38,899 bases of DNA. Source: Candidatus Bathyarchaeota archaeon. Its GTDB lineage: Archaea > Thermoproteota > Bathyarchaeia > Bathyarchaeales > Bathyarchaeaceae. Location: the NCBI GenBank assembly GCA_030608565.1, contig JAUWDY010000017.1, forward strand, positions 1 through 38,899, in the 5' to 3' direction. The stretch's first letter is position 1. The number at the start of each line of letters is the position of its first letter. A program made the translations under genes and the position numbers. Below are positions 1,873 through 17,869 of this stretch, piece after piece. Below the pieces are notes generated by a model. That model had not been told where the DNA came from. It searched no databases and worked only from the letters and a program-made list of their open reading frames with translations.

Positions 1873-2883
1873 ATGCAAACTGTATGCATAATAAAAAGAA
1901 AGACAAACAAATTATTAGGAAGTTCCTACAAATTAACCTACGATTTGCCAATGCGCCCATTATACAGCACTAAGAGGGGTACCTTATATAATGGTGATTC
2001 AGCAAACATTTTGAAAGAGAAATGCTTCTATGGTTTTAGGCATAAGATCAACTTGATATTTACCTCACCTCCTTTTCCGTTGATTAGAAGTAAAGCTTAT
2101 GGCAACCTCAATGGTCAAGATTACATTGAGTGGTTGTCTGGTTTTGGCCCTATTTTTAAAGAATTGCTTGCTCCGGATGGTTCTCTAGTCATTGAGCTCG
2201 GAAATGCCTGGCAGACAGGTAGCCCAACAATGTCACTAACATCAATACAGAGTCTAATCGAACTAAAGAAAAAAGGAAACTTCCATTTATGTCAAGAATT
2301 TATTTGGAACAATACTTCAAAACTTCCATCTCCTGCACAATGGGTTAATGTTGAAAGAATACGAGTAAAAGATGCGTTTACACGTCTTTGGTGGCTATCC
2401 TCCAAACCACGGCCAAAAGCAGACAACCGGCGAGTACTGAATGAATACAGTTCCTCAATGAAACGACTATTGAAGAGAAAGCTGTACAATTCAGGTAATA
2501 GACCGTCTGAACATAAAATCGGTGAACAAAGTTTTCTGAACGACAATAGAGGCGCAATTCCCTCAAATGTGCTGTCAATCCCAAATACAGTTTCAAAAGA
2601 CCCATATCTCACATACTGCAAGGAAAAAGGAATCAAGCCTAATCCTTCAAGAATGCCCTTGGAGTTAGCGAAGTTCTTCATCCTTTTTTTGACCGATGAA
2701 AGTGACACCGTTCTCGATCCGTTCGCTGGGAGCAATGTTACCGGGTATGTTGCTGAAATATGTGGTCGAAGATGGATAAGCGTCGAAATTGATGAAATCT
2801 ATGCCAATTCATCAAGGTCTAGATTCAACAACTCTTGGATAATCACCCAGAAATGCATGGAACAACATCTCTGCAAGGAGTAG
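1873..2883 (+). CDS. DNA methyltransferase (N4-cytosine/N6-adenine type), first gene of a defence operon
   Basis: The 336-residue protein carries catalytic motif IV as TSPPFP (about residue 64) early and the AdoMet-binding motif I as DPFAGSNVTGYVAE (about 281) late. This permuted order is that of beta-class amino-methyltransferases; SPPF leans towards N4-cytosine. It would transfer a methyl group from AdoMet to an exocyclic amino group in a specific DNA sequence. The region between the motifs probably holds the target-recognition part. The stop is separated by a single base from the GTG start of the helicase, and the downstream genes read as one operon. An in-frame ATG at 1951 (MRPLYSTKRG) is an equally reasonable start, because conserved sequence begins there. 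In this context it probably marks self DNA for the rest of the system. Confidence 0.88.
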   Translation: MQTVCIIKRKTNKLLGSSYKLTYDLPMRPLYSTKRGTLYNGDSANILKEKCFYGFRHKINLIFTSPPFPLIRSKAYGNLNGQDYIEWLSGFGPIFKELLAPDGSLVIELGNAWQTGSPTMSLTSIQSLIELKKKGNFHLCQEFIWNNTSKLPSPAQWVNVERIRVKDAFTRLWWLSSKPRPKADNRRVLNEYSSSMKRLLKRKLYNSGNRPSEHKIGEQSFLNDNRGAIPSNVLSIPNTVSKDPYLTYCKEKGIKPNPSRMPLELAKFFILFLTDESDTVLDPFAGSNVTGYVAEICGRRWISVEIDEIYANSSRSRFNNSWIITQKCMEQHLCKE

Positions 2884-2884
2884 A

Positions 2885-5065
2885 GTGTCTATCTTGAATC
2901 CAGTAACTTCAGGCGATGTTGGTCTCCGCAAATTAAGGCTGAAATCAGAATACAATTCAGATGACGATAACGTTATCAAAGACCTTTACGGCCCCTGTCT
3001 GAAAGAATCGATTAAATATGATAGGGCTGTGGGGTATTTTCGAGCCAACATTTACCGGGAATTAGGTGAACACTTGTTAGATTTTGTAATAAGGGGCGGA
3101 ATGGTTAGAATTGTTACCTCGCCTGATATTCCCGAACCTGACGAAACTGCAGCCAGGGAAGGTTATGCACTTCGAGGCAAAAGATCGGTTGAGGAAAAAG
3201 AAACGAACCTAATTAGAGTAATGGAAACCATGTCTAAAAATCCAAAAGAATCTGATTGTCTTGATATGTTACGGCTTCTTATCGAGAAAGGTTCACTTGA
3301 CCTATTTGTAGCAATTAGAAAAGGAGGAATCTACCACCGAAAAATCGGCATATTTGCTGATGCACTCAACAATAGAGTTGTATTCTCTGGTTCTGGAAAT
3401 GAGACAAGCAGAGCAGTCTGCCCATTGGAAGACTGGGGTAATGATGAAGATTTCGATGTTTTTCGTAGTTGGGGAGATAAAATTGAAGTAAAAAAAGCTG
3501 AGAAGAAAGAACAACACTTGGAAACTCTGTTTGCAGGAGGAAGTAAAAGGACAAAGGTAAGACTGCTCAATCAAGTTGAGCGAGATTATTTGAATCGATT
3601 TCGTTCGCATAATTCTTTTGAAGATTGCCGAAGAGGGGCAAGAGAAAGATCCCGTTATTTCGAAACCTCACAAAAACCTCAGAAGGGAATTTCTCTCTAT
3701 ACTTATCAACGTGACGCGATAAAGGCATGGAAAGCAGCAGGCAATGTTGGCATGCTTTCAATGGCAACTGCAACAGGGAAAACATATACTGCATTATTTG
3801 CAGTAGAGAATCTACTCCTACAAGGCAATCCTATTTTGATATTGGTTCCAAGTAAGATTCTCATCGATCACTGGTCAAAGGCGGTTTCGAAAATCTACCC
3901 TAATGTACCAGTCCTTTTAGCGGGCGGGGGGCATTCCTGGAAGGCAGAGACAAATAAGCGCATGTTCATATCCAAAATAAGTCGTCCTCGTATTATCTTG
4001 GCAACTATGGACACAGCGGTTTCAGATGATTTCATAGAATTCTTCAAACAGTCTCAGAATCCAGTGTTAATTGCCGATGAGGCTCATAGATTAGGCAGCG
4101 AAGTTCGTAGAAAGATACTAGATTTAGATTTCATAGCCAGATTAGGGTTATCAGCAACGCCAGAAAGGTTGTTTGATGAAGAAGGATCCGCAATCTTAGT
4201 TAATACATTTGGTGAAACTCCTGTGTATTTTTTAGATATTGGTGCTTCTGTAAGGCTTTCAGATGATGATACAAAAGAAGTGGCAATTCTTGGGCATTTC
4301 CTAAGCAAGTATGAATACTATTATTACACTGTAAATCTGACTGAAAGGGAACAAAAACGATGGAATTCACTAACCAAACAGATAAAGCAGTTAGTTGCCA
4401 TACATCAATCCAAAAAAAAGAAGGAAGATACAAAATCAAACATTAGATTAAATCTGCTATTGATTGCGAGAGCAAGAATCATAAAGAAAGCTGAGAACAA
4501 AGTTAGGATTGTAAAGCAAATTATCAAAGAGAAGTATCCTTCAAATGGAAAATGGATAATTTATTGTGAAGATGAAAATCAATTAAACTTAGTTACCGAT
4601 TCAATTACATCTGATCATAGTCATTTAGTAGCATTGAAATATCATTCAAAAATGGCATTGGAGAAACGAGACAGAGCGCTTGAGTATTTTGAGCAGAATC
4701 CGAGTGTCATAGTAAGCATTAGATGTCTTGATGAAGGTGTCGATGTACCTTCAGCTGATGGCGCAATAATATTAGCCTCTTCTAGCAATCCACGCCAATT
4801 TATACAAAGACGAGGTCGAGTACTAAGAACGGCGAGAGGTAAGAAGGGTGCAACCATAATAGATGTAATCGTCTTGCCAAATTCTAGCGAGACGGATGTG
4901 CCATTCTCGATAGTCAAAGGCGAATTGGCCAGAGCTTGGAATTTCGCGAGGAACGCGCAGAATCGAGACATAACACACAGACTGTGGAGAAAATGTAAGG
5001 AATATGGCGTAGACTTGGAACTAGACGCACGATTAGGTTTTGAAGAAGAGAAAATGGAGGATTAA
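2885..5065 (+). CDS. SF2 (DEAH) helicase with N-terminal phospholipase D-like nuclease domain
   Basis: A 726-residue protein. The N-terminal third holds one HKD-type phosphodiesterase motif, HRKIGIFAD (about 151) followed by SGSGNET (about 168), the H-x-K...D...GS-x-N pattern of PLD-family nucleases. The rest is a superfamily 2 helicase: Walker A ATATGKT (about 295-301), motif II ADEAH (about 397), motif III LSATP (about 420) and motif VI QRRGRVLR (about 640). It starts with GTG, and AGGAG at 2876-2880 is the ribosome-binding site inside the end of the methyltransferase gene. PLD-helicase fusions are known from Dnd-like and helicase-methylase-ATPase defence loci, where the protein is thought to translocate on and cut foreign DNA. 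Domain calls are secure; the role is inferred from context. Confidence 0.9.
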   Translation: MSILNPVTSGDVGLRKLRLKSEYNSDDDNVIKDLYGPCLKESIKYDRAVGYFRANIYRELGEHLLDFVIRGGMVRIVTSPDIPEPDETAAREGYALRGKRSVEEKETNLIRVMETMSKNPKESDCLDMLRLLIEKGSLDLFVAIRKGGIYHRKIGIFADALNNRVVFSGSGNETSRAVCPLEDWGNDEDFDVFRSWGDKIEVKKAEKKEQHLETLFAGGSKRTKVRLLNQVERDYLNRFRSHNSFEDCRRGARERSRYFETSQKPQKGISLYTYQRDAIKAWKAAGNVGMLSMATATGKTYTALFAVENLLLQGNPILILVPSKILIDHWSKAVSKIYPNVPVLLAGGGHSWKAETNKRMFISKISRPRIILATMDTAVSDDFIEFFKQSQNPVLIADEAHRLGSEVRRKILDLDFIARLGLSATPERLFDEEGSAILVNTFGETPVYFLDIGASVRLSDDDTKEVAILGHFLSKYEYYYYTVNLTEREQKRWNSLTKQIKQLVAIHQSKKKKEDTKSNIRLNLLLIARARIIKKAENKVRIVKQIIKEKYPSNGKWIIYCEDENQLNLVTDSITSDHSHLVALKYHSKMALEKRDRALEYFEQNPSVIVSIRCLDEGVDVPSADGAIILASSSNPRQFIQRRGRVLRTARGKKGATIIDVIVLPNSSETDVPFSIVKGELARAWNFARNAQNRDITHRLWRKCKEYGVDLELDARLGFEEEKMED

Positions 5066-5066
5066 G

Positions 5067-5243
5067 ATGAAAGATGAGAAATTGTTGAAAGTACTGATTG
5101 AAACAAATGAAAAAAGAGAGAACCCAGTAAATCCAGACATTCTTAGACAGATTCTTTCAATAATCATGTTAAACCCCTTAGAAGAAGACAGAGGCCGAAG
5201 CCAAGATCAAATCAAGCACATCATAACAAAGACTAGAGAGTGA
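5067..5243 (+). CDS. 58-residue charged protein inside the defence operon
   Basis: ATG at 5067 lies one base after the helicase stop, with GGAGG at 5056-5060 as a well-placed ribosome-binding site. The product (MKDEKLLKVLIETNEKRENP...) is helical and highly charged with no membrane segment or known motif. The next gene begins 6 nt after its stop. Its conserved-looking spacing and strong ribosome-binding site argue that it is translated. It could be a small adaptor between helicase and ATPase, comparable in place to the small Dnd-type subunits, but this is only inference. I do not recognise a family. Confidence 0.6.
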   Translation: MKDEKLLKVLIETNEKRENPVNPDILRQILSIIMLNPLEEDRGRSQDQIKHIITKTRE

Positions 5244-5249
5244 AAGAAA

Positions 5250-7259
5250 ATGAAAATAACAAAGATTAAACTTCAAAATTTTGGCCCATTCTATGATGTG
5301 CATGAAATTATATTTCCTAGCGGTAGTGGTGTAAACATTATACACGGTAATACAGGACAAGGAAAGACATCGATACAGAGAGCTATTTTGTGGTGCCTGT
5401 ATGGAAAAGTATTAGATAGGAACGGCAAAGAGATCCCGCCAACTTCGCTGTTGAATAGATCCGCGTTCAGAGACGGTAATTTTGCATTTGCAGTTAGCAT
5501 ATCTTTTGGTCACGAAGGGAAAAATTGTGTGTTGACTCGCAAGACGGCAGCTCTTGTCCATCAAGACAGGAGGTACTTGCATGGAATGAAATCGTCTTTA
5601 GTGGAAAACGGAGACCCCGTGGCAACTACTTTAAGCGAAACCCGACTGAAAATTGAGAGAATTTTGCCATTTAATGTCAGCAGATTTTTCTTTTTTGATG
5701 GAGAAATGCTCGTAAAATATGAGGAATTGTTAGATCAAGATAGCCGATCAATGAGAATATTGAGAGATTCAATAGAACACATTTTGGGAATTCCTTATTT
5801 AAGAACTGCTAGAGACGACCTTTACGAAGTGGAAAGGAAACTGGAGAAAGAACTTGCAAGGCTCCTAAGAAGAATTGGTGGAAAAGATTATGATGAGTTG
5901 GCTGAACTCTATCAGTATTGTTGTGAAGAAATTGAAAGAAAAAAGGACCTAATAAAAAAGCTTCAGGGTCAGATAGATTCTTTAGAAGAAGAGATTGCAA
6001 CGAAAAAGAGAAGATTAACGGAAATACGATCAGTCCAGGAAGATGCCATAAGAAGGAGAGAGATCGACAGTCAAATTGAAATGCTAGAAACGAGAGGCGA
6101 GTCCGAAAAAATAAGGCTGAAAAACTTGAATTCCGGGCTTTACAAAACGATTCTTTCATCGACAGCTAAAAGCATAATAGATCAACTGAAATTGAAACAT
6201 GAAAAGGTTATGGGCAAATATAATGAAAAACAACAATTACTAGGCAAATTGAAGAGTCTAAAACATGCTATTGATGCCGCGAGGTGCAGATTCTGCGGGA
6301 GTATACTTAATCCTACGAAACTCAAAGAATTCGAAAATGAATATAAAGAAACAGAGGTTAAGATTGAATCTCTGACGGAAATTCCAGAACCTAATCTTGT
6401 ATATGAAACTTCAGCAAGATACTTGGAAAAAATGAGATCCCAATTAGTGAAATCCAACGAGTATGGACAAATTGATGAAAAACTTGCTGAAATTGCACAC
6501 AAAATAGCAAGTCAAAAGGCAATCCTTAAGCAGGTAGAACAGAAACTAATTGATGTTGATGAAGAGGAGCCTTTTAGATTGGAGACTCGAATTAGAGATG
6601 AAAAGGAAGAAGTGGGTCGCTTGAAGGGAGAAAAATCTTCTGTAGAGGATCAACTTGGAGAAGATTTTCAGACTCAGTCTGAGTTAAATCAGAAATTGGC
6701 TAGGATAAATCGAGAGGAGATAAACACATTAGGAGAAATGATTGACTATACTAAAAGAATCTCAGATGTATTTGAAGAATCAATCGCAGTTTATCGAAAC
6801 AAACGAAGGAAAGAAGTAGAATCAAAGGCAACTGAAATATTCCGAGAGATAAGGTCAAAGGAGGATTTTTCAAGACTCGATATAAATGAAAACTTTGGTC
6901 TTAGCATTGTTACAAAAAGCGGCACACTGTTGAATAGAGCAGAATGGCGTTCTGCTGGGGAAGAACAGATTGTTGCCCTCGCATTGATTGGTGCGCTAAA
7001 CAAGTGCGCCAAGATAGAAGCGCCAGTCTTCATGGATACACCATTTGCCCGATTGGATATAGCACACGGACAAAGGGTCTTAACATATCTTCCGAAAATG
7101 TCAGATCAAGTAGTAGTTTTCGTTACAGATAGAGAATTCAGAAAAGAAGACGAAGTATATCTTGAAGGAAAAATCATTAGCGATTACAGCTTAGAATATA
7201 GAGGCGAAGATGAAGGATCTTACATAATTATGACATCCCATATCGGAGGTTCTGCATGA
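5250..7259 (+). CDS. DndD/Rad50-like SMC-family ATPase
   Basis: A 669-residue ABC-type ATPase with the layout of DndD and Rad50. The N-terminal head IKLQNFGPFYDVHEI carries Walker A GNTGQGKTS (residues 33-41). Two long coiled coils (about 190-340 and 365-500) flank a central C-R-F-C (about 346-349) that looks like a zinc hook. The C-terminal head has the ABC signature SAGEEQ (about 567), Walker B APVFMDTPF with ARLD (about 590-600) and a switch region VVVFVTDREF. Such proteins bind DNA and dimerise with ATP; in phosphorothioate and helicase-methylase-ATPase systems they act with the helicase in restriction. The stop overlaps the start of the next gene in an ATGA. The family assignment is firm; the nature of the DNA substrate is unknown. 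Confidence 0.9.
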   Translation: MKITKIKLQNFGPFYDVHEIIFPSGSGVNIIHGNTGQGKTSIQRAILWCLYGKVLDRNGKEIPPTSLLNRSAFRDGNFAFAVSISFGHEGKNCVLTRKTAALVHQDRRYLHGMKSSLVENGDPVATTLSETRLKIERILPFNVSRFFFFDGEMLVKYEELLDQDSRSMRILRDSIEHILGIPYLRTARDDLYEVERKLEKELARLLRRIGGKDYDELAELYQYCCEEIERKKDLIKKLQGQIDSLEEEIATKKRRLTEIRSVQEDAIRRREIDSQIEMLETRGESEKIRLKNLNSGLYKTILSSTAKSIIDQLKLKHEKVMGKYNEKQQLLGKLKSLKHAIDAARCRFCGSILNPTKLKEFENEYKETEVKIESLTEIPEPNLVYETSARYLEKMRSQLVKSNEYGQIDEKLAEIAHKIASQKAILKQVEQKLIDVDEEEPFRLETRIRDEKEEVGRLKGEKSSVEDQLGEDFQTQSELNQKLARINREEINTLGEMIDYTKRISDVFEESIAVYRNKRRKEVESKATEIFREIRSKEDFSRLDINENFGLSIVTKSGTLLNRAEWRSAGEEQIVALALIGALNKCAKIEAPVFMDTPFARLDIAHGQRVLTYLPKMSDQVVVFVTDREFRKEDEVYLEGKIISDYSLEYRGEDEGSYIIMTSHIGGSA

Positions 7260-8176
7260 GTTCAGCCTTTGGAGACATCAGAACACTTCCCGCTAGCAAA
7301 ATGGCTAAGAAACAAATGAAGCAATTAGTTTCAAAAGATCTCTTCAATGAACAGAGAGATGTTTGGACTCTGGGCGCCGCCCTTGGCATAGTTTCTGGGA
7401 ATACGTATGAACGCGGCAATAGAGGAACATTCCAGAATGTCAACAGCCTGGACCCAGAAGGAATATTCTCGGCTATTATGTTTGGTCTCCACCCTAATGC
7501 CACTCCAAAGGAACGAGCGAAAAAATTGGTGGATCATGCAGAGTGGGGTATAAGAGAAATCTTTCGCAGAGAGCAAAGCGGAACACTTGATTTCGCGAAA
7601 CTATGTGAATATGGTTCTCTACCTGAAAAACTTAGATTTAGATTAGAGAAAGAAATTGAAGAAAAGAAGAAACGCCTAGTTGATGTAAGAGAGTTGATGA
7701 AAGATGGTGAAACTGAGAAGATTGAGTTCAAGTCTTCCATGTGTTGGGATTATGACGAAGGAAGAAGAAGCAAAATCATGGAATTTGCGGTGGCAAAGAC
7801 GGTTTCTGCCTTCATGAATTCAGACGGTGGACATTTACTAATAGGTGTTAGAGACGACAAGCAGATACTTGGACTAGATAAGGACTTTGAAGCGATAAAG
7901 AAGCCTGGTACAGATGCATTTGAACTACATTTCACCAACATGATCAACAAATATCTTGGAAAAGAAAACAGACCCTATGTCAAAATACGATTTGAAGACT
8001 TAGATTGCAAAAAAATCGGTGTTGTTATTGTTCCAAATAGAGCCCCAGAGCCCGTCTATGTAGGATCTGAAAGAGGAGAAGAGGAATTCTACGTACGCCT
8101 AGGCAATTCATCTCATCCTTTGAGTGTCAGACAAGCAGCAACATACATTAAAAATCACTTTTTGAAAAAGACCTAA
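7256..8176 (+). CDS. AlbA_2 (Schlafen-like) domain protein with an N-terminal Dnd-associated-like region
   Basis: A 306-residue protein. The C-terminal half has the AlbA_2/divergent-AAA_4 pattern: EKIEFKSSMCWD (about 153), the helix KTVSAFMNSDGGHLLIGVRDD with the hallmark N-s-dGG-l-iGV, and VPNRAPEPVY plus a final FYVRLGNSSHPL strand. Schlafen-like AlbA_2 domains are nucleic-acid binders, often nucleases, in defence loci. The N-terminal half (KDLFNEQRDVWTLGAALGI...) resembles small proteins associated with Dnd systems, a resemblance judged by eye. It overlaps the ATPase gene by 4 nt (ATGA) behind a GGAGG, so the two products are probably made in fixed ratio. It is the last gene of the operon; a run of seven T follows at about 8250. 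Confidence 0.8.
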   Translation: MSSAFGDIRTLPASKMAKKQMKQLVSKDLFNEQRDVWTLGAALGIVSGNTYERGNRGTFQNVNSLDPEGIFSAIMFGLHPNATPKERAKKLVDHAEWGIREIFRREQSGTLDFAKLCEYGSLPEKLRFRLEKEIEEKKKRLVDVRELMKDGETEKIEFKSSMCWDYDEGRRSKIMEFAVAKTVSAFMNSDGGHLLIGVRDDKQILGLDKDFEAIKKPGTDAFELHFTNMINKYLGKENRPYVKIRFEDLDCKKIGVVIVPNRAPEPVYVGSERGEEEFYVRLGNSSHPLSVRQAATYIKNHFLKKT

Positions 8177-8247
8177 AGTCGTGCGAGGAAAGAACCCTCT
8201 AATTACGAGAATCTAACTCATGCAAGAAGCATGAAGAGTCACAGACC

Positions 8248-8258
8248 CTTTTTTTATC
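8248..8258 (+). terminator. T-rich transcription terminator after the defence operon
   Basis: A run of T residues at about 8249-8256, some 70 nt after the stop of the last operon gene, fits archaeal intrinsic termination, which needs only a T-tract on the non-template strand. No strong hairpin precedes it. Confidence 0.4.
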
Positions 8259-8319
8259 TTCTGTACGAACCTGCATTGCATGCATGGGGCGCCTCGCAAG
8301 AAGAAGCGCACATAGTCTT

Positions 8320-9033
8320 CTATGATTTGAAATATTCGCTTGGCAATTCATCCTGTAGCCTTTTCCCGTCTTTCGCAAGTTCCTTGGCTTTTAGTTTGAA
8401 AGCAAGAAAACCCATATCGTAACCCTGTTTGGCGACTTTCCAGAAGCCCAAAAGAAGTGCTAGGATCAACAAAAGAGAAAAAAGCAAGACCATGAAGTCA
8501 ATAGTCTGCCAATTTACCAGGTCATCTAAAACGCGTGGTGTGTGCAGCACACAATTCCTCAGGATCCACCCGGATACCCCGCCAAATACAATAGCTACAA
8601 TCGTAGAGCCAAATGTGTTCATCAGATCCCATCTCCTGCCAATATATGAAGAGATCCGCTTTTCCTCGAATGAGTTCACAATGTAGTTGTAAACCAGAAT
8701 GCAGGCATCATTGTCTTTAAATCTGAATTCTTTCAGCTTCCTTTTCAAGAAAATCGCCAAAAATGGGTAGAGTATGAACCAATAGACCAAGAACCAAGCC
8801 TGCGAAACTAGGAAGCCAATGGCTCCACCACTCAGTAACGTCAGGAACCCTAGGACAATTCCAAACAGTGCTGTGTAGTTGCCAGACGGATCAGCTTCGG
8901 GCATTAGATCTAGAAAGAAAAATGCCACAGGCTCTAAATTGAGAAGCAAATTCCAGAAGATGAATGTGTATCCCGGAACTGTATATCTAAGGCTGAAAAA
9001 AGACCTTTCAGATATGATGTCGCCCTTGGACAT
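8320..9033 (-). CDS. Four-helix integral membrane protein of unknown function
   Basis: A 237-residue protein with about four hydrophobic segments: residues 20-45, 55-95 (a long double segment rich in G and F), 140-158 and 172-195. A charged cytoplasmic-type stretch (RKLKEFRFKDNDACI...EEKRISSYIGRRWD) lies between the second and third. The C-terminus is helical and charged. No enzyme motif is visible and I do not recognise the family. It converges on the defence operon, and an ATGCATGCAT-type palindrome lies right after its stop (8277-8284). It may belong to the accessory island or be unrelated. Confidence 0.6.
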   Translation of the reverse strand: MSKGDIISERSFFSLRYTVPGYTFIFWNLLLNLEPVAFFFLDLMPEADPSGNYTALFGIVLGFLTLLSGGAIGFLVSQAWFLVYWFILYPFLAIFLKRKLKEFRFKDNDACILVYNYIVNSFEEKRISSYIGRRWDLMNTFGSTIVAIVFGGVSGWILRNCVLHTPRVLDDLVNWQTIDFMVLLFSLLLILALLLGFWKVAKQGYDMGFLAFKLKAKELAKDGKRLQDELPSEYFKS

Positions 9034-9131
9034 AATCTAAGTTAAATCCCGGGAATAGATTAAGCTTCCTCTAAGGCTGAATGAGCAGCCGCGCTGCTTT
9101 CGCTTCAAGCGCATTATCCAATGCATGCATG

Positions 9132-10046
9132 TCAAATCTCTTTGAAGTCATAGTTTATCCATTTAGAAAGTCGCGCAATAGTGTCAATATCCTCCTGTAT
9201 AATCTCCCAGCGACCCCTCAGAATAGCTAAGGACTCTGTTATCGCGTTCAGCTGAATCTGATGCCTGTAAGGCAAAGAACCAGTATATCTTGAAAGCAAC
9301 TCCTCATAAACCCGTAACTGACGAAGAAGAAGTTCCGGAGACGAAACTTTTTTGGGACGTTTCTTAACCGTGAACTTCACCTTGGTTATAGGATCTGGTC
9401 GTTTTGCCTCAATGTCATCCATAATCCTTCCTGTTGTATTAACAGAATGGTTGAAAGAGAATGGTAAGAGCCTTGATAGAAAACCAGTGTTTTTCCAGGC
9501 ACGTTTAAACTCTCCGTAAGAAGCGTTTGTGGTGGCCGTGATGAGACCTGCCCTTACAGGCTTATCTGCCTTGAACTCAAGGTGATAGTCAGAAAGGTCA
9601 AGAACACCTTCTTTGGTCATGCTCCGTAGAACCGCAACCAAGGTCGTCCGAGTGCTCTTTCCATGGCTCATACAGTTGGTGAAATCTGGGATTGCTAGAA
9701 ACTTTTTCTCTCTCGTCTTGATCTTCCCCAAGAACGCAACCAGATACTTTGGCGTAATGTCATTCACGTAGCTGACAAAACCCATACGCTGCAGAGGCGA
9801 GAGCAAACGTGATTTCCCGATGCCCGGTTTACCCAAGAGCAAAAGCGAAATCGGCTTCTCACAAGACTTCAAGAACGCCGTCTGCAACACTAGATTGATC
9901 ATAAGCAATATAGGCTCGTCAGATGGACCCACTTCCCCAAAAAAGGAACCCTGACATACAGAGTTACTTTTTGACCTAAGTGGGTTCACCTGAGCCTCCT
10001 GCAACGACAGCGAAACTTCCGCATGAGATGCATGTCTCTTCTTCAA
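9132..10046 (-). CDS. P-loop ATPase (AAA+-like), probably replication or mobilisation of an integrated element
   Basis: A 304-residue protein with a clear Walker A, GKPGIGKSRLL (about residues 67-77), a Walker-B-like strand KKFLAIPDF, and a sensor-like strand RAGLITATTNASYG followed by an R-rich FLSRLLPFSF segment that could hold an arginine finger. The C-terminal third is helical and winged-helix-like (EDIDTIARLSKWINYDF). The layout recalls single-domain helicase-like ATPases of plasmids and viruses. The start codon is TTG and overlaps the stop of the upstream gene, so the two are co-translated. Its neighbours (a short conserved replication-type protein, a very basic protein and Cas1) support a mobile-element role. 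Exact subfamily not recognised. Confidence 0.7.
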   Translation of the reverse strand: MKKRHASHAEVSLSLQEAQVNPLRSKSNSVCQGSFFGEVGPSDEPILLMINLVLQTAFLKSCEKPISLLLLGKPGIGKSRLLSPLQRMGFVSYVNDITPKYLVAFLGKIKTREKKFLAIPDFTNCMSHGKSTRTTLVAVLRSMTKEGVLDLSDYHLEFKADKPVRAGLITATTNASYGEFKRAWKNTGFLSRLLPFSFNHSVNTTGRIMDDIEAKRPDPITKVKFTVKKRPKKVSSPELLLRQLRVYEELLSRYTGSLPYRHQIQLNAITESLAILRGRWEIIQEDIDTIARLSKWINYDFKEI

Positions 10047-10420
10047 TGTTCAGGAACCTCGGTTCTGTAGATGACCCTCAACCGCCTACCGGGAACCTCA
10101 AAGAGCTTATTCCATTCAGTAAGACCTGATTCTATGCGCGCTCGGTTAAAATCCACGCGCAACGTGTCATCTCCAAGCAACCACTGAAGCTTGTTTGCAA
10201 GAGATGCTTCAACCGGAGGAGTTATTGAAATGTAGAAGTGCAAGCCCTTACGCCTGCTGGGACACATCTTAATCGAGTTCACTGACGTTCCGAAAGCTCT
10301 GCAGGTTGGAACCACAATTCTGTGTACATATTCGTCTATCCAGTCTTCATCGACGAAACAGTCCTTGTCGATCTTCAATTCAGCGACTTTTACGCTTTCG
10401 TTTACGCTTCTTCTTGACAT
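10043..10420 (-). CDS. Small conserved protein with a replication-protein-like motif
   Basis: A 125-residue protein. Its core has the blocks SRRKGLHFYISI and LQWLLGDDTLRVDFNRARI, followed by SGLTEWNKLFE. I associate these blocks with small proteins on archaeal plasmids and integrated elements. KGLHFYI is reminiscent of the His motif of archaeo-eukaryotic primases, but the acidic DxD motif I would expect before it is not present, so I do not call it a primase. It overlaps the downstream ATPase start by 4 nt and the upstream basic-protein gene by 41 nt. A TTG in frame closer to the conserved part (LKIDKDCF) is an alternative start that would shorten that overlap. Confidence 0.6.
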   Translation of the reverse strand: MSRRSVNESVKVAELKIDKDCFVDEDWIDEYVHRIVVPTCRAFGTSVNSIKMCPSRRKGLHFYISITPPVEASLANKLQWLLGDDTLRVDFNRARIESGLTEWNKLFEVPGRRLRVIYRTEVPEH

Positions 10421-10763
10421 AAGTCAACACTCGACTGGGCAGGGGGTAGGCTTTCCACCGTTTGCCTTTTCCCTCCATCCGTCTAACTTCAATATGGATC
10501 ATCCGCTCAGATTTCGTCAGCAAAATTGGCTGCTCCCTTTCAAAAGCACCTCTGACCTTGCGCTTTCGTGGCCACCGTTTATAAAGGCGGTAAACATTCT
10601 GCTGGAAGTGCGGTACACATCTCTTCGCTAGGTATCTACGTGTGCTCCTAATAGTGCCGCGGCGAGCAACCTTGTAGTGCATTTCATACTCTTGCACCTT
10701 CTGGGCTTCATGGTCGTACCATGTGCTAGAAATGGTCATGCGATAAATTCTAACAACAGTCAT
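10380..10763 (-). CDS. Very basic small protein, probably nucleic-acid binding
   Basis: A 127-residue protein with extreme positive charge (many R and K, ending in KKKRKRKRKSR) and few acidic residues. This suggests binding to DNA or RNA. A hydrophobic-polar strand pattern early (VVRIYRMTISSTWYDHEAQKVQEYEMHYKV) may form a small beta domain. A purine-rich ribosome-binding site (AAGGGGGATGA) sits upstream of its ATG. It heads the three-gene minus-strand set basic protein, small conserved protein and ATPase, transcribed away from the divergent gene at 10930. Family not recognised. Confidence 0.55.
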   Translation of the reverse strand: MTVVRIYRMTISSTWYDHEAQKVQEYEMHYKVARRGTIRSTRRYLAKRCVPHFQQNVYRLYKRWPRKRKVRGAFEREQPILLTKSERMIHIEVRRMEGKGKRWKAYPLPSRVLTYVKKKRKRKRKSR

Positions 10764-10887
10764 CTAGACTTCATCCCCCTTGGAAATCATGACAATACCC
10801 ATCCGTATGATGCCCATCGAAACTCCAAGCTCGGTTGAGGTTATACGGTGGGTATTTCCAACGCTTTGTGAGTTGTTTCATACAAGA

Positions 10888-10897
10888 CTATATATTT
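10888..10897 (+). promoter_or_regulatory. TATA box of the gene at 10930
   Basis: CTATATATTT ends about 32 nt before the ATG at 10930, the spacing expected for an archaeal TATA box and a transcript with a very short leader. It decides the choice of the 10930 start over the ATG at 10780, which would lie upstream of the promoter. Confidence 0.6.
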
Positions 10898-10929
10898 CGG
10901 GGAGGGCACCCATTTTTCGGTTAGTACAA

Positions 10930-11916
10930 ATGAGTTTTCAGGCCACTTACTCGGTTTACGGTTTAGATTTCGAGAATACCTACGGCAAGTTGAGGGAGTC
11001 TGAGCACGTTACAGGCGGTTTAGAAGTTACCAAGGGCACTGTCCCGTTTTGGCTGAACATCAACAACGAGAAGGTTAAAGTTCAAATCACAAACAAAGGC
11101 TGTGTAAACATATGGCATCGTGAGCGGACCTACATAGATAGAGCCGTGGAGGAGCTGAAGCCTCTCACTGTTAACAGAAAAGGGGAGCAATGTGAAGACT
11201 GGGTGCTCGTGAACATGCAGATAATAGGTTCAACAAGGATAGCAACACCTCTAACTGAAGAAATCGTGAGATCAGGAACAGTCTATCCACCAGTACCAAA
11301 AGTCACAGAAGCCAAGCCACAAGCTGACAAAAACACAATTCTTGAACACATCCAAAAGATTGAAGGTGCAATTAGCTTGAAGAATTGGAATAAAAGTCTA
11401 TCATCTATTGTTGAACTACGACAATTATGCATTCACAATAGAACAGGCCACGTACCAGAACTTTTGAGTGCGATCAGAAGATTCGTAGACACACAGGGAC
11501 TGTTTGAAAATGAAGAAACACGTGAAGAGTTGGCGATGGTGATGGCTTATATTCTTGAAAACGAGAAAAAATCTGGAAACACTGAAAATGCCAATGAGGT
11601 AACTAAGCAGCTGTTGGACTCTATTAGAAAGATTGCCTTGTATGATAGAAAAAACGGTTTGGTTTATTCACTTCGGTTTCTAGGAGAGACTGAAGTGAAG
11701 GAGTCAGTTGACGTCATAATGGTTTTGATAAGCCAGCGCTCCTCCGAGATCACTGGCAATCTTGAGGGTGAGATTCATTATGTCCTGTATGGTTCTGAAC
11801 TTGCCAAAGCGCAAAGAGAATATGTTCGAGAAAAACTGGTTGAACTTTCAGGTTCTGAGGACGAGCCCGCTGGGCTTGTTGCTATGCGCCTGCAGAAGAA
11901 GCCTCGTCTCGTTTAG
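10930..11916 (+). CDS. Hypothetical protein of the Cas1 island
   Basis: A 328-residue soluble protein starting MSFQATYSVYGLDFENTYGK. Residues 1-110 look mixed alpha/beta (strands TVPFWLNINNEKVKVQITNKGCVNIWH) and are followed by a proline-rich linker (about 125-140). From about 145 on it is helical, with paired amphipathic helices resembling a helical-repeat scaffold. No catalytic motif, signal peptide or membrane segment is visible. It is divergent from the basic-protein operon and convergent with the ribbon-helix-helix gene. A strand-rich head with a helical tail would suit a DNA- or protein-binding partner of the island, but I cannot assign a function. Confidence 0.6.
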   Translation: MSFQATYSVYGLDFENTYGKLRESEHVTGGLEVTKGTVPFWLNINNEKVKVQITNKGCVNIWHRERTYIDRAVEELKPLTVNRKGEQCEDWVLVNMQIIGSTRIATPLTEEIVRSGTVYPPVPKVTEAKPQADKNTILEHIQKIEGAISLKNWNKSLSSIVELRQLCIHNRTGHVPELLSAIRRFVDTQGLFENEETREELAMVMAYILENEKKSGNTENANEVTKQLLDSIRKIALYDRKNGLVYSLRFLGETEVKESVDVIMVLISQRSSEITGNLEGEIHYVLYGSELAKAQREYVREKLVELSGSEDEPAGLVAMRLQKKPRLV

Positions 11917-11949
11917 GACCTGAAAGACCAGCGCTCATCTTTTCACTTA

Positions 11950-12102
11950 TTAAACCGAGTTTCTGTTTCTCAGGTAATCCGCTATGATTTGCCTGGTCAC
12001 TTCTTGGATTGTTTCCAGTCTGCGGGCTTTTCTCTCCCTTTCTAATTCTTCCATCATCTCGTCTGAAACTGACATCATAAACCGTTTCATACACTTCGCC
12101 AT
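11950..12102 (-). CDS. 50-residue ribbon-helix-helix (CopG-like) regulator
   Basis: Reading the minus strand from ATG at 12102 gives a 50-residue protein. A short beta strand KRFMMSVSDEMMEELE is followed by two helices (ELERERKARRLETIQEVTRQIIADYLRNR). This is the classic ribbon-helix-helix layout: a strand that inserts into the DNA major groove, then two helices for dimerisation. A TATA box (GTATTTAAGTA, 12124-12134) lies about 22-32 nt upstream. It is divergent from cas1 with a 108-bp shared promoter region, so it is well placed to repress both itself and cas1. CopG-type proteins often control copy number or excision of mobile elements. Confidence 0.72.
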   Translation of the reverse strand: MAKCMKRFMMSVSDEMMEELERERKARRLETIQEVTRQIIADYLRNRNSV

Positions 12103-12210
12103 ATCTACATGCACCTATGGGAATACTTAAATACTTATCTATACTAAGATGCTGGTAGATGTACACAAGTATCAAGAGATATAACAGCAAAAACATTTGG
12201 GTGACAAATA
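12103..12210. promoter_or_regulatory. Divergent promoter between the ribbon-helix-helix gene and cas1
   Basis: The 108-bp gap holds two opposed TATA boxes: GTATTTAAGTA on the minus strand (12124-12134) and AGATATAAC on the plus strand (12177-12185). The latter lies about 26 nt before the TTG start of cas1. Short A/T-rich repeats (ACTTAAATACTTATCTATAC) near 12125-12143 are candidate operator half-sites for the ribbon-helix-helix protein. Confidence 0.5.
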
Positions 12211-13425
12211 TTGAATATCCTTCATTTAACCGGGTATGGAGTGAAAGTCAAAGTTAAGAATCTTACGAGACGTTCAGAACTGGCAATAACTGATGGACGA
12301 GAAAACTATAGAAGCAAACCGGCAACATACACGTTTCGTCCCAGAAGAATGCCCTACGACTCGATAATCATTGACGGTCACAGCGGTTACATTTCGCTTC
12401 AAGCTTTCCACTGGCTTTCAAGAAACAACATTCCAGTTTTCATCCTGAACTTTGATGGAAATCTCATCACAAGCATTCTTCCACCAACACCTGTGAAAGC
12501 GGATATAAGAATGGCTCAGATACAGGCGGCATCTAATGATGCCAAACGGTTTCAAATCGCGTATGCACTGGTCCAAGCTAAGATCAAGAGAAGTTTGGAT
12601 GTTCTTCAGTGGATAGGAGATAGATATGATATAGAGGATGAGATCCGCCGGGTGAAAGGAGAAGTTCCAGCACTTTTTAACGCTAAGACTGTTAGTGGCG
12701 TTCGCATGGTTGAAGGCCGGGTTGCCCGTGGATATTGGCAGGCCTACAAGTCTGTTATACCTGAATGCTTCGATTTTCAAACCCGAAAGACTAGGAGTCA
12801 TAACAATAATGCGGTGGATCCGGTTAATTTGGCTTTGAACTATGCGTATGGAGTGCTTGAAGGTGAATGCCGCAAAGCCATCAACACTGTAGGCCTTGAA
12901 CCTTCAATAGGTTTTCTACACAAGTTCAGCGACTACCAGACTAAACAGTCGTTGGTGTATGATTTGCAGGAACCTTTCCGATGGATAGCGGACGTAGTTG
13001 TGCTGGAAGCTTTTGAATCGGGGGTTCTTGATCTTAAAGACTTTTACTTCCTAGGAGACGATTACAGATACCGTTTGGAGGCGGATGCAAAGAGACGGTT
13101 TCTGGCTTTGCTTAAAGAGCGCTTCAACATTGGAGTTCGATACCGCGGATGTACACGCAAATGGGATACAGTTATACTGCGTAAGACTCAGGAGTTAGCC
13201 AGATATCTTTTGGGTAAATCGAAAACCTTGAGTTTCAATGAGCCTCATCCTGGTCTAGTAAGGATTGATAATAGAGAACTTCGCAACCGAATTTTGCAGT
13301 TAAGCCAGAGTGAGGCTAAAGCGTTGGGTATTGGAAAGAGCACGTTGCATTATCTTCGTAAATATGCTCGAAGCGATAGGTCGTTTAAAACCTACAGTAA
13401 AGTTGCTGAAAAACTAGGCGCGTGA
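12211..13425 (+). CDS. cas1: Stand-alone Cas1 integrase with a C-terminal helix-turn-helix
   Basis: The 404-residue protein has the full Cas1 layout. An N-terminal beta domain (LHLTGYGVKVKVKN... DSIIIDGHSGYISLQAFHWL...NIPVFILNFDG) is followed by the all-helical catalytic domain. The metal-binding residues are all present: E168 in VEGRVARGYW, H237 in GFLHKF, and D251/E254 in LVYDLQEPFR. LNYAYGVLEGECR is also typical. Cas1 inserts DNA by transesterification. The last 45 residues (SQSEAKALGIGKSTLHYLRKYA) form a helix-turn-helix, a feature of casposases and some archaeal Cas1 proteins. It starts with TTG, with GGGTGA just before it and a TATA box at 12177. No cas2, effector or CRISPR array is visible in the window. 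Confidence 0.93.
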   Translation: MNILHLTGYGVKVKVKNLTRRSELAITDGRENYRSKPATYTFRPRRMPYDSIIIDGHSGYISLQAFHWLSRNNIPVFILNFDGNLITSILPPTPVKADIRMAQIQAASNDAKRFQIAYALVQAKIKRSLDVLQWIGDRYDIEDEIRRVKGEVPALFNAKTVSGVRMVEGRVARGYWQAYKSVIPECFDFQTRKTRSHNNNAVDPVNLALNYAYGVLEGECRKAINTVGLEPSIGFLHKFSDYQTKQSLVYDLQEPFRWIADVVVLEAFESGVLDLKDFYFLGDDYRYRLEADAKRRFLALLKERFNIGVRYRGCTRKWDTVILRKTQELARYLLGKSKTLSFNEPHPGLVRIDNRELRNRILQLSQSEAKALGIGKSTLHYLRKYARSDRSFKTYSKVAEKLGA

Positions 13426-13500
13426 GATTTCTCTGACTCACGAAGCCTAAACAAATTCTTAAATTGCGTGGCCACATGTTTGGACGACTATCTATTACAG

Positions 13501-13522
13501 AAAAACTCTAGTTTTTACTAGA
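13501..13522 (-). terminator. Hairpin plus T-run terminator for the HD-domain gene
   Basis: On the minus strand TCTAGT-AAAA-ACTAGA forms a 6-bp hairpin (13507-13522) followed directly by GTTTTT (13501-13506), 10 nt beyond the stop codon of the HD gene. The hairpin is symmetrical, so it could also affect readthrough from cas1 on the other strand. Confidence 0.55.
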
Positions 13523-13531
13523 TGCGCACAT

Positions 13532-15445
13532 TTACTTTTTCTTTCTGAGAGTCATAGACGAATCTTTCAATTCTATGAAGATACTCGTTCCAGGAGCAAG
13601 CATTTCATTGATCCTTATAGTTGTTGCTTGTCCGACATCGTGTTGAGTGACAATTTGTGTAATTCCATCAGTATACATTTCCTGAGCTTTCAGCAATGTT
13701 GCTAGAGTTGAAAATCGATAACTTTTTGGAAACTCATCACAAGTAACAACAAGTCCCTTTGTATACTGGGTAAGAATCAAAGCCACAGAATCCCATGGTA
13801 GCATATGAGAGTGCCAACTGTACTTAAATCCAACAACATCACCAGGAGGAATAGGATTAAGATAAACGAAGGATACTTGAAGATGGGTTTTTCTGCTGTC
13901 AACAAGTTTAGTGAGACTATACCGAGCGATGACGCTATCATCAACATGAATTTTGTGCTTGCGCATTAGCTTGTTTCTAAGTTCCTCGGGAGGTATCTCC
14001 GAGTGTTCCGATTGCCATGGAGAGTATATTATTGCAGGCTTCATTAATTCTTGGCCTCTGGAAAAAGACATGTTGAAGTTCAAAAAGTCTTGCATTGATT
14101 TGGGATCAAGAGGCTTGCCTTCTGGAAACCCAGCTGTCAAGCGCAGAAAAGTGCCATTTCCAGATAACCATTGCTTGTGATCAGAATTATTGAAAACATC
14201 ATAAGATACTTCATTTCTCACTCTTATTACGTTGGATTCGGAAGTGCGATCGCTCAGTGTGTCCGGCTCAAGATATTTGTAGATCCGTCTATAGTTATAC
14301 TGCAACAAATTTCGCAAGCTATCGCCATGCACAACCCGTTGTCGGAATTCTGAAAAAGCATCCTCTGGAATTCGATCCACACTAGGAGCAAGCGTGTAGG
14401 TGCTTCCAACTGAAGTATCAACTATCAGTCTTTCTTTTAAAAAAGCATGAAAAGTATCAATAACAGCCCTCTGAATGGGGCGGACAATCCATGGTTCAAC
14501 AAAGTACTCGCTGTATTCTTTTGATGGAATGATTGAATGAATGTGGATTTTAATGTCTACATTATCCTTACGAATTTCTGAATCCAAGCTAACTCCAGTC
14601 GTATAGTAGTGTCTCATCAATTGTAAGGGAATATACCCTAGCTTTTCTTTGAGCGTTCTCAGTCGTGAATCACTTGGTTGAAGTCGAATACGACTTGAAA
14701 ATGAAAGGTTGTCAGCCAACTTAAGAAGAGCAGACAAAAATTGGATTCTAACTCTATCACTTTCTACTGCATTATCCTCATATTCATCTTCTTTCAATGG
14801 GACATCTCTGTGTGCCTTTGTCACAAGTGCGATCAGAGGAGCAAACGGAAACCCACCACAAATGTCAATGTTGTTCATTATGTGAGAGTATGACTTCAAG
14901 TGATGTGTGTGCCGTATAACTCCAAAATCTTCCGATTCACCGACTTCAAAATACCCTATGTCATGTAGCCAAGCAGCGCTCAACAAAACCAGTATTTCAC
15001 TTTGATTGAGTCTGTTGTTGGACTTCATATACTTACGGAGTAGTCGATCTAGTATCTGAACGACCGATTCTGTATGTTCATAGCCATAAGCAACCGGATG
15101 GAACAATAGCGATGTATCTCGCTTCCACAATTCTCTGCAATGAGCTTTGATCTTAGCCAAGAGTGCTCTTTTGCGATCGTCAATAATGCTATCTTCAAGC
15201 CTACCTGCACTAATAACTCTTCTTGCCTGGACTGACTCAGTCGCTTCTACGTAAGTCTCTCTAGGCGAGATTTTTCGAATACTGATTAATCCTGCACTTG
15301 CCAATTTCCGCAACGTTCTGTATCCTGTTGCCTTTTTGATCCCTGCACTTTTCCAAAGGTTGGCGTCTACTCGGATTCGGTCACTGCTTCTAATTATCTC
15401 CAGCAATCTACGTTTTTCAGGGGACAACAACAGCTCATTTTCCAT
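13532..15445 (-). CDS. Winged-helix/HD-domain phosphohydrolase-like protein
   Basis: A 637-residue protein. Residues 1-70 form a winged helix (KRRLLEIIRSSDRIRV...GIKKATGYRTLRKLASAGLISIRKI). An HD domain follows with all key residues: H124 in GYEHTESV, H161-D162 in AAWLHDIGYF, histidines at RHTHH (178-182), and D245 in LADNLSFSS. Such domains bind metals and hydrolyse phosphoesters, often nucleotides or cyclic nucleotides. The C-terminal half (about 330-637) is a separate alpha/beta region I do not recognise. The ATG overlaps the stop of the upstream membrane-protein gene by one base (TAATG), so the pair is co-expressed. A receptor or effector pair acting at the membrane is a reasonable inference. 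HD domains of similar layout occur in prokaryotic conflict systems. Confidence 0.8.
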   Translation of the reverse strand: MENELLLSPEKRRLLEIIRSSDRIRVDANLWKSAGIKKATGYRTLRKLASAGLISIRKISPRETYVEATESVQARRVISAGRLEDSIIDDRKRALLAKIKAHCRELWKRDTSLLFHPVAYGYEHTESVVQILDRLLRKYMKSNNRLNQSEILVLLSAAWLHDIGYFEVGESEDFGVIRHTHHLKSYSHIMNNIDICGGFPFAPLIALVTKAHRDVPLKEDEYEDNAVESDRVRIQFLSALLKLADNLSFSSRIRLQPSDSRLRTLKEKLGYIPLQLMRHYYTTGVSLDSEIRKDNVDIKIHIHSIIPSKEYSEYFVEPWIVRPIQRAVIDTFHAFLKERLIVDTSVGSTYTLAPSVDRIPEDAFSEFRQRVVHGDSLRNLLQYNYRRIYKYLEPDTLSDRTSESNVIRVRNEVSYDVFNNSDHKQWLSGNGTFLRLTAGFPEGKPLDPKSMQDFLNFNMSFSRGQELMKPAIIYSPWQSEHSEIPPEELRNKLMRKHKIHVDDSVIARYSLTKLVDSRKTHLQVSFVYLNPIPPGDVVGFKYSWHSHMLPWDSVALILTQYTKGLVVTCDEFPKSYRFSTLATLLKAQEMYTDGITQIVTQHDVGQATTIRINEMLAPGTSIFIELKDSSMTLRKKK

Positions 15446-15798
15446 TATCCATCACCCTCCGGAGGGTCAATCCTCACTATAATTCTGAAGACCCCTTTCC
15501 CAGCAACGACTAGACTTATCGCTACTAATGCACAGCCTGTTGCAAATAGAAAGTAGGTCGCGTAAATAACTATTTGTTTCAAGGGGTCGCCCATAAAAAT
15601 CGCTAATCCTAACAGGGCAACAGCGTTTACCATGAATACTAGAGCTGCCAGTAACCCCATAACAAACGTCATTCTTCCCTTCTTCCTTGCTCTTTGAGAA
15701 TTGCTTCCGCTCAATCTCAGCCCTATTGCCATCACAGCTACACTAACACCAATCATTCCAACTGAAAGCTTGAACAACACAAGCGTGGTTTGATCCAC
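15445..15798 (-). CDS. Three-span membrane protein coupled to the HD-domain gene
   Basis: A 117-residue protein with hydrophobic segments at about residues 5-25, 43-68 and 74-108 separated by a basic loop (SNSQRARKKGR). It ends in IIVRIDPPEGDG. It has no signal peptidase site and no recognised family. Its stop codon shares a base with the start of the HD-domain gene (TAATG at 15445), a strong sign of translational coupling. It may anchor or regulate the HD protein at the membrane. Confidence 0.65.
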   Translation of the reverse strand: MDQTTLVLFKLSVGMIGVSVAVMAIGLRLSGSNSQRARKKGRMTFVMGLLAALVFMVNAVALLGLAIFMGDPLKQIVIYATYFLFATGCALVAISLVVAGKGVFRIIVRIDPPEGDG

Positions 15799-16139
15799 CA
15801 GAGAGCAACTCCAAATTTAAGTCCATTAAGCCCGTTATGATACTTAATGAACTAGTTGAATATATCGGTTCTGGTTTTTTATGTAGGTAGATGGAAGCCA
15901 AAATTGTAGATAGTCGTAGCGTGCGCAAACCAATGGTTTCCATAACAGTGGCATGGAATGAAGACTAGGTCTGTCTGCCCGAAAAATACTATTCCAACTT
16001 CCAGCTCTCAAGGAGCCATTGTCAATCTTTTATATTTGATTTCACTTACGCTGTTGAGACTCAGTTTTCTAGGACATGCACGCGCGCACTGTCGTTGCAT
16101 GTATGCAGTAAAGATAGAAGAACTGAACGCACACGGAAT
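15799..16139. other. 341-bp gap without a convincing gene
   Basis: The left part carries the promoter of the membrane/HD pair (AT-rich DNA around 15815-15865 on the minus strand). The middle has only a 25-codon ORF at 15891-15968 and a longer, codon-poor frame at 15958-16239 that runs into the Ntn-hydrolase gene from the opposite side. Around 16070-16110 lies CATGCACGCGCGC and TGCATGTATGCA, a degenerate form of the ATGCAT palindromes found in other gaps. Confidence 0.4.
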
Positions 16140-16925
16140 TCAAGCTGTCAAACCGCACGTATCAACACCGTTGGGAGTTATTAGCAAAGTGTCGATTTTA
16201 CCCCCTATAGTAGGCAGATGCAAATTGCTAAGTTTATAGAGTTGAGACATTGTAGTTATTTGAAACCGTAGCCACTCAGCTCTTTCCCTTAAATTTCTTG
16301 AGTGTGGGATTGTCAAGTTACGGTATCGAGATAAAGCCTGCAAAAACCTATTGAGATGCTGGAAAAGAGCTGCGTATATTGTGAAATCGCCGTTTCGAGT
16401 TATATATGTAACTCCTGCGGATATTACCGGTTGAACTAGGTTTGGTGGCAGGTCGTGATTTGCGTTGATCATTGCGGGGTTTATAGTTACCCCTCTGATG
16501 CTTAATGCCGTGCTTGGTCCGTTGTGTATATGATGAAAAGATGGAGTTGGATTTCCTCTATAGTTGACAAACCCCGCGAGGTGGAAACCTAAAGTTCCGT
16601 GGGGATTTGTTCGGACATTTATCAGAGGGATGTGGCGCCTTAACTCGTTTTGCAGGAGAACGGCAAAGCCGGATAACGAATTATAGTTTGTCCTTTGATT
16701 ATTTATGAAATCTTGTAGCCAGATGTCAGTGGGGGTGTTATTTATGCTACCTTGTCCCCAAACAGATATACCCGCATCCAATTTGTCTATGACCTGTAAT
16801 TTGCGAACGCCAGTGAGGACTCGATATATAATATTCCCATTTGGTCTGACTATTTTCTCTGTGACAGCAGAATCAGCAGCCATGGCTACACCAAATGTAG
16901 AGATTTCGGTCAAAATTAGCGTCAT
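16140..16925 (-). CDS. Proteasome-like Ntn hydrolase with N-terminal threonine
   Basis: A 261-residue protein. If translation starts at 16925, Met removal exposes Thr-1 of TLILTEISTFGVAMAADSAVT. Then Asp falls at position 17 (MAADS), exactly as in proteasome beta subunits, and Lys-41 in VRKLQVI fits the catalytic Lys-33 after a short insertion. GISVWGQG resembles the GxxaD/G oxyanion region. The start is supported by a TATA box (minus strand CTTTTATAA, 16949-16957) 25-30 nt upstream, giving a leaderless message. Alternatives at 16934 or 16994 would bury the Thr. It is longer than a beta subunit (about 200) and is not in a proteasome operon, so it is probably an independent self-processing hydrolase or transpeptidase. 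The family match is by pattern only. Confidence 0.68.
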   Translation of the reverse strand: MTLILTEISTFGVAMAADSAVTEKIVRPNGNIIYRVLTGVRKLQVIDKLDAGISVWGQGSINNTPTDIWLQDFINNQRTNYNSLSGFAVLLQNELRRHIPLINVRTNPHGTLGFHLAGFVNYRGNPTPSFHHIHNGPSTALSIRGVTINPAMINANHDLPPNLVQPVISAGVTYITRNGDFTIYAALFQHLNRFLQALSRYRNLTIPHSRNLRERAEWLRFQITTMSQLYKLSNLHLPTIGGKIDTLLITPNGVDTCGLTA

Positions 16926-17397: not shown

Positions 17398-17500
17398 CGC
17401 ATTCCAGAGCATCATGCAATAATTCTTTCTGTCGTTTTAAGCTTTCTCCGTCGCGTCATGACACAAAACGAAAAATGCGGTTCCTCTCACAAGGATAGCA

Positions 17501-17776: not shown

Positions 17777-17869
17777 GTTGACTGTTTGTGTCGAGTTTCA
17801 TATATAAGAATCATATGTTGGCCTTTATTCACAAAAATTTCATCTATTCAGCATCCAGACGTTGGGTGG

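What the first reader, a model, noticed from the sequence alone, without database searches (positions are those of the whole stretch)
1873..8176. Five-gene defence operon: methyltransferase, PLD-helicase, small ORF, DndD-like ATPase, AlbA_2 protein
All five genes are spaced by -4 to +6 bases and have strong ribosome-binding sites. The helicase-methylase-ATPase core is the set described as the Hma type of antiviral system, and the ATPase and helicase also resemble the restriction half of phosphorothioate (Dnd) systems. The added AlbA_2 protein and the 58-residue ORF are not part of that core as I know it, so this may be an extended archaeal variant.
Basis: partly seen in the sequence, partly recalled or inferred. 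Interest (0 to 1): 0.75.

Follow-up and report, generated by a model that had tools for sequence, protein, structure and literature searches.

The report
Methylase-linked PbeABCD with a Schlafen arm
An archaeal five-gene antiviral operon turns out to be a known defence core (PbeABCD) that carries its own DNA methylase in place of sulfur-tagging genes, and whose last protein has gained a domain resembling the RNA-cutting part of the animal Schlafen proteins, a combination I found in no earlier description.

Summary
The five genes are there, spaced 1, 1, 6 and -4 bases. They are an M.PvuII-like N4-cytosine methylase plus PbeA, PbeB, PbeC and PbeD. They are not Hma, whose ATPase is DUF499. The "small ORF" is PbeB, a core gene. 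The same five genes in the same order occur in five other genomes with an intact upstream end; two truncated copies also match, one from a bacterial MAG. The window's genome (98.5% complete) has no dndC, so methylation, not phosphorothioation, is the likely self mark. Methylase-paired Pbe systems were foreseen in print.

The unusual part is the last gene. In all seven relatives PbeD is a separate protein of 122-127 aa. Here it runs on into a Schlafen AlbA_2 domain with all three SLFN13 catalytic acids. A divergent PbeABCD in the same order has the same fusion: PbeA 34% and PbeC 26% identical, PbeD unrecognisable, yet AlbA_2 50%. A third, phosphorothioate-linked relative also ends in an AlbA_2 gene. 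None of 13 Pbe operons in the relatives' phylum (345 genomes) has it. AlbA_2 is thus a portable module. I propose that it adds RNA cleavage to a modification-sensing DNA system. RNase activity is inferred.

The parts
1873..2883 (+). M.PvuII-like beta-class N4-cytosine DNA methylase (336 aa as called; likelier start 1951, Met27)
   Evidence: Pfam N6_N4_Mtase 1e-30; PDB 1boo M.PvuII E 8.6e-76 over aa 27-327; SPPF at aa 65 precedes DPFAGSN at aa 282
2885..5065 (+). PbeA: HKD/PLD nuclease-like N-terminus plus SF2 helicase (726 aa, GTG start)
   Evidence: PADLOC PbeA 8e-185; ResIII and Helicase_C; NCBIfam dnd_restrict_1 2e-98
3335..3400 (+). HKD motif HRKIGIFADALNNRVVFSGSGN (PbeA aa 151-172)
   Evidence: motif search
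5067..5243 (+). PbeB: 58-aa small protein, conserved at this place in all clade members
   Evidence: 36-43% identity to the corresponding ORF in L021-L025, L107, L108
5250..7259 (+). PbeC: DndD-like ABC ATPase with CRFC Zn-hook (669 aa)
   Evidence: PADLOC PbeC 1.1e-110, DndD 2e-53; Walker A aa 33, CxxC aa 346
7256..7621 (+). PbeD domain (aa 1-122) of gene 5, stand-alone in relatives
   Evidence: 61-66% identical over aa 1-117 to 122-127-aa proteins that follow PbeC in L021-L025
7673..8176 (+). AlbA_2 (Schlafen-like) domain, aa 140-306 of gene 5, predicted RNase
   Evidence: Pfam SLFN_AlbA_2 1.5e-18, aa 152-289; E152, E157, D200 align with SLFN13 E205, E210, D248

Best explanation
A five-gene methylase-PbeABCD antiviral operon of the CxC-ABC/PbeABCD kind. 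The PvuII-like methylase marks the host's own DNA with N4-methylcytosine, possibly at CAGCTG. PbeC (ABC ATPase) with PbeD (DndE-like, DNA-binding by published inference) scans DNA for unmarked sites. PbeA (HKD domain plus helicase) translocates on and disables or cuts that DNA. PbeB is a small essential partner or regulator. In this variant PbeD is fused to a Schlafen AlbA_2 domain whose three catalytic acids are intact. My proposal is that the scanning complex, once it has found unmarked DNA, also switches on cleavage of tRNA or other RNA through PbeD, so that a blocked infection becomes translational shutdown. Shown by sequence: gene content, order, homology, conserved motifs, recurrence of the five-gene unit, absence of dndC, and the movement of AlbA_2 between Pbe systems. 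Inferred: target site, DNA scanning, RNase activity and abortive outcome.
For: PADLOC PbeA and PbeC matches. M.PvuII match. Same five genes in L022, L024, L025, L107 and L108 with the methylase at 59-67% identity. No dndC in the window's genome. PbeD stand-alone in seven relatives and fused here. A second fusion in divergent L026 with AlbA_2 50% identical, while PbeD is not recognisably similar and PbeC only 26%. AlbA_2 domains of the two are nearest each other in the tree, 85/93 support. Catalytic triad present. Related AlbA_2 domains sit at the C-terminus of GmrSD restriction proteins. Literature: PbeABCD antiviral, all four genes needed (PMC6459918); methylase-linked CxC systems noted (PMC10853773); Schlafen RNases described as backup suicide effectors in BREX-type systems (PMC12839542).
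Against: No experiment. The window is the only fused member among eight in its own clade, so the domain is dispensable for the core. In L026 the residue matching D248 is Asn. PbeD's DndE fold is by position and a weak profile match only (P 0.0015); direct comparison with DndE gave nothing and both structure models were too poor to use. CAGCTG is not depleted in the window (7 against 7.7 expected), which neither supports nor refutes that target.
Confidence: 0.6

Rival explanations
1. Same methylase-PbeABCD system, but the AlbA_2 part is a non-catalytic nucleic-acid-binding or dimerising extension of PbeD that tunes DNA recognition.
For: D248 position is Asn in L026 and L078; the core does without the domain in seven relatives; in PbeABCD the studied effect was a replication block, not cleavage (PMC6459918).
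Against: All three acids are kept in the window and in most other C-terminal copies compared, including the GmrSD fusions; the domain moved as a unit between unrelated defence proteins, as effectors do.
Confidence: 0.3
2. Hma-type helicase-methylase-ATPase system, as first proposed.
For: It does combine a helicase, a methylase and an ATPase; Hma-related helicases can also bear an HKD domain (PMC12839542).
Against: ATPase is DndD/PbeC-like, not DUF499; methylase is m4C PvuII-like, not m5C; PbeB and PbeD are present; no Hma model among the listed hits.
Confidence: 0.02
3. A PT-dependent PbeABCD whose phosphorothioation genes lie elsewhere in the genome.
For: Characterised PbeABCD depends on DndCDEA (PMC6459918).
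Against: No dndC in the 98.5% complete genome, nor in five of the seven related genomes (one further genome has only a weak sub-cutoff match), although the search finds true dndC in G500 and G426; the methylase is in the operon in all six copies with an intact upstream end.
Confidence: 0.05
4. Assembly or binning artefact: the PbeD-AlbA_2 fusion or the contig does not belong to this archaeon.
For: Draft assembly of 45 contigs; the fusion is unique in its clade.
Against: Uninterrupted 306-codon ORF inside a 38.9-kb contig; an independent fusion of the same design in another genome of the same order (L026); housekeeping genes on the same contig.
Confidence: 0.03

Closest known systems
PbeABCD (Haloterrigena jeotgali A29; Xiong et al. 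2019, PMC6459918)
   Same: PbeA helicase, PbeB small protein (66 aa there, 58 here), PbeC ATPase and PbeD (152 aa there) in the same order
   Different: There paired with DndCDEA phosphorothioation and PbeD is stand-alone; here a methylase heads the operon, there is no dndC, and PbeD carries AlbA_2
CxC ABC-ATPase-DndE systems with methylases (Rakesh et al. 2024, PMC10853773)
   Same: HKD-helicase, small protein, CxC ATPase, DndE cognate, and in some cases a permuted cytosine-N4 methylase
   Different: Nucleases listed there are HKD, HNH, REase, URI, HEPN and PIN; no Schlafen or AlbA_2 domain is mentioned in the main text
PvuII restriction-modification (M.PvuII, PDB 1boo)
   Same: Methylase homologous over its whole length (E 8.6e-76)
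   Different: The partner is PbeABCD, not the R.PvuII endonuclease
Schlafen RNases (SLFN13, PMC5862951; Schlafen backup effectors of BREX, PMC12839542)
   Same: AlbA_2 domain by Pfam and the E-E-D catalytic acids
   Different: One AlbA_2 domain fused to PbeD instead of the two-lobed SLFN core or the histidine-kinase/wHTH fusions described for BREX
Hma / DUF499-centred BREX-related systems (PMC8565338, PMC12839542)
   Same: Helicase, methylase and ATPase
   Different: Different ATPase family, different methylase class, different gene set

Membership tests
PbeABCD / CxC-ABC system | PbeA: HKD domain plus SF2 helicase | tested here: met
   PADLOC PbeA 8e-185 full length; HKD motif at aa 151
PbeABCD / CxC-ABC system | PbeB: small protein between PbeA and PbeC | tested here: met
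   58 aa, homologous in seven relatives
PbeABCD / CxC-ABC system | PbeC: DndD-related ABC ATPase with cysteine Zn-hook | tested here: met
   PADLOC PbeC 1e-110; CRFC hook
PbeABCD / CxC-ABC system | PbeD: DndE cognate after PbeC | tested here: inconclusive
   A 122-aa domain is conserved at that place, but profile similarity to other PbeD is weak (P 0.0015), none to DndE, and the structure models failed
PbeABCD in the strict sense (PT-dependent) | Partner phosphorothioation genes (dndC) | tested here: not met
   No dndC in the genome
Hma | DUF499 ATPase (HmaC) | tested here: not met
   Pfam and PADLOC give AAA_23 and PbeC/DndD, no DUF499
Hma | m5C methylase (HmaB) | tested here: not met
   Methylase is M.PvuII-like m4C with beta-class motif order
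Schlafen RNase | AlbA_2 domain and E-E-D catalytic acids | tested here: met
   Pfam above cut-off; E152, E157, D200
Schlafen RNase | RNA cleavage | not testable with these tools
   Needs biochemistry

The most novel reading that the evidence does not exclude
PbeD-AlbA_2 is a working switch that couples detection of unmethylated invader DNA to Schlafen-type RNA cleavage, so that a modification-sensing DNA system becomes abortive-infection immunity; the AlbA_2 module is passed between Pbe, Dnd-linked and GmrSD systems as an interchangeable effector.
Probability: 0.35. Interest if true: 0.7.

Novelty: new variant of a known kind. Interest (0 to 1): 0.5.

Why it matters
Xiong et al. suggested that many PbeABCD cassettes without phosphorothioation genes might pair with methylation. 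This operon family, with a methylase of known class in every copy whose upstream end is intact and no dndC in the window's genome, makes that directly testable. The PbeD-Schlafen fusion physically ties the presumed DNA-recognition subunit of a modification-based system to a predicted RNase, which bears on the open dispute over whether PbeABCD cleaves nucleic acid or acts by cell suicide.

Tried and rejected
Hma membership: ATPase and methylase families do not fit. PT dependence: no dndC. AlphaFold of gene 5 and of the PbeD domain alone: mean pLDDT 36 and 40 with six-sequence alignments, so no fold search was run. PbeD against DndE by hhalign: no signal; against the haloarchaeal PbeD group: weak. 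Viral contigs: no relative of gene 5 or of PbeA. Plasmids and phages: only the AlbA_2 half of gene 5 matched. CAGCTG avoidance: no power, no depletion. Same-genus comparison of the flanking gene 8320-9033: absent from the three other genomes, so no empty site could be read. The DndDE loci among the PbeC-family hits (L097, L100, L102, L103, L106) were set aside from the Pbe count.

Full report
Observation. Five co-directional ORFs fill 1873-8176 with gaps of 1, 1, 6 and -4 bases. Genes 2, 3 and 5 have good Shine-Dalgarno sequences, gene 4 a weak one, gene 1 none. Gene 1's homologues begin near its Met27 (base 1951).

Identity of the core. Gene 2 is PbeA (PADLOC 8e-185; HKD motif plus SF2 helicase), gene 4 is PbeC (1e-110; Walker A and CRFC hook). 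Gene 3 sits where PbeB sits and matches the corresponding ORF of seven relatives at 36-43%. Gene 5, residues 1-117, is 61-66% identical to 122-127-aa proteins that follow PbeC in five loci from Methanoperedenaceae, Methanophagales, Methanocellaceae and a record titled Epsilonproteobacteria; that is the PbeD position. [quoted passage not shown]

The methylase. Gene 1 matches M.PvuII (1boo) over residues 27-327 at E 8.6e-76, with SPPF before DPFAGSN, the beta-class order of N4-cytosine methylases (class assignment from general knowledge of these families). All five relatives with an intact upstream end (L022, L024, L025, L107, L108) have the same methylase, 59-67% identical, just upstream of PbeA. 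L021 and L023 are cut by contig ends. The window's genome lacks dndC, while the same search finds true dndC in G500 and G426. Xiong et al. proposed that PbeABCD without dnd genes may pair with methylation, and Rakesh et al. mention permuted cytosine-N4 methylases in CxC systems, so this pairing is anticipated; the fixed five-gene unit with a PvuII-like methylase is a concrete instance.

The AlbA_2 domain. Gene 5 runs on into an SLFN_AlbA_2 domain (E 1.5e-18, aa 152-289). The alignment with 5yd0, the Schlafen chain it matches, places E152, E157 and D200 on the catalytic E205, E210 and D248 of rat SLFN13 (PMC5862951); one search shows them in the family alignment. None of the seven relatives has the domain, fused or elsewhere in the DNA fetched around it. 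In a sample of 345 genomes of the relatives' phylum, 18 PbeC-family loci were found; 5 are canonical DndD-DndE and 13 are Pbe-type, all 13 with a stand-alone gene in the PbeD position. In 398 genomes of the window's own phylum, six loci have a full-length PbeA; two have the fusion, the window and G336.

Module transfer. The G336 locus (L026) is a PbeABCD without a methylase. Against the window, PbeA is 34% and PbeC 26% identical, the PbeD halves are not alignable (Z 0.4), yet the AlbA_2 halves are 50% identical over 158 aa (Z 77). L026's own unfused relative, L069, shares 54-59% in PbeA, PbeC and PbeD and has no AlbA_2. The two AlbA_2 domains group together in a tree of 18 (85/93; below the tree tool's own threshold for a firm branch). 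A third lineage (L029, L138) has HKD-helicase, small ORF, ATPase and a 375-380-aa protein ending in AlbA_2; in L138 it follows a dndCDEA-like set with a further gene upstream that resembles dndB by eye. Further AlbA_2 domains end GmrSD restriction proteins, one with an EVE domain. The domain behaves as a portable C-terminal module of restriction-type defence proteins.

Mechanism. Methylase marks self; PbeC-PbeD scans; PbeA acts on unmarked DNA; PbeB regulates; AlbA_2 adds RNA cleavage on activation. The first part follows from published work on the families, the last is inference from the intact catalytic acids and from Schlafen RNases acting as backup suicide effectors in BREX-type systems (PMC12839542). 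The main rival is a non-catalytic role for AlbA_2.

Known or new. Hma is excluded: its ATPase is DUF499 (PMC12839542) and its methylase m5C (PMC8565338). Rakesh et al. list HKD, HNH, REase, URI, HEPN and PIN nucleases with the ATPase-DndE core and the words Schlafen and AlbA do not occur in their main text; of the papers searched, none joins Schlafen with DndE or Pbe (one whole-word search of the open-licence library, so not exhaustive, and the 2020 ABC-ATPase classification paper is not held). I rate it a new variant of a known kind.

Limits. PbeD's relation to DndE rests on position and a weak profile match. Both structure predictions failed. The genomes are drafts without names. No functional step was tested.

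Noticed in passing
window 12211-13425 (+): Solo Cas1-family protein, 404 aa, with about 100 residues beyond the Cas1 domain; no Cas2 recognised beside it. A second cas1 lies elsewhere in the genome (C42). No clear terminal inverted repeats in 8000-19900, so a casposon is not shown.
   Followed up: partly
window 13532-15445 (-): 637-aa protein with an HD-CE domain and weak MarR/TrmB-type HTH matches, next to the solo Cas1.
   Followed up: no
window 9132-10763 (-): Three overlapping ORFs without Pfam matches, one with a P-loop (LLLGKPGIGKSRLL), looking like a replication module of an integrated element.
   Followed up: no
L138 1863-11992 (G426) and L029/L068 (G201): A dnd-type PT set followed by HKD-helicase, a 64-aa ORF, an ATPase between PbeC and Lamassu LmuB in score, and an AlbA_2 protein; in G201 near-identical cysteine desulfurase genes precede both this unit and an ordinary PbeABCD, as if the downstream module had been exchanged.
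   Followed up: partly
L027 6772-9501, L028 5948-8071: GmrSD_N (DUF262) proteins ending in the same AlbA_2 subfamily, L027 with an additional EVE domain.
   Followed up: partly
L076 8844-9524 (G124): A 226-aa PbeA fragment 63% identical to the L026 PbeA N-terminus, with stops in the reading frame: apparently a decaying Pbe locus in the window's own family.
   Followed up: no
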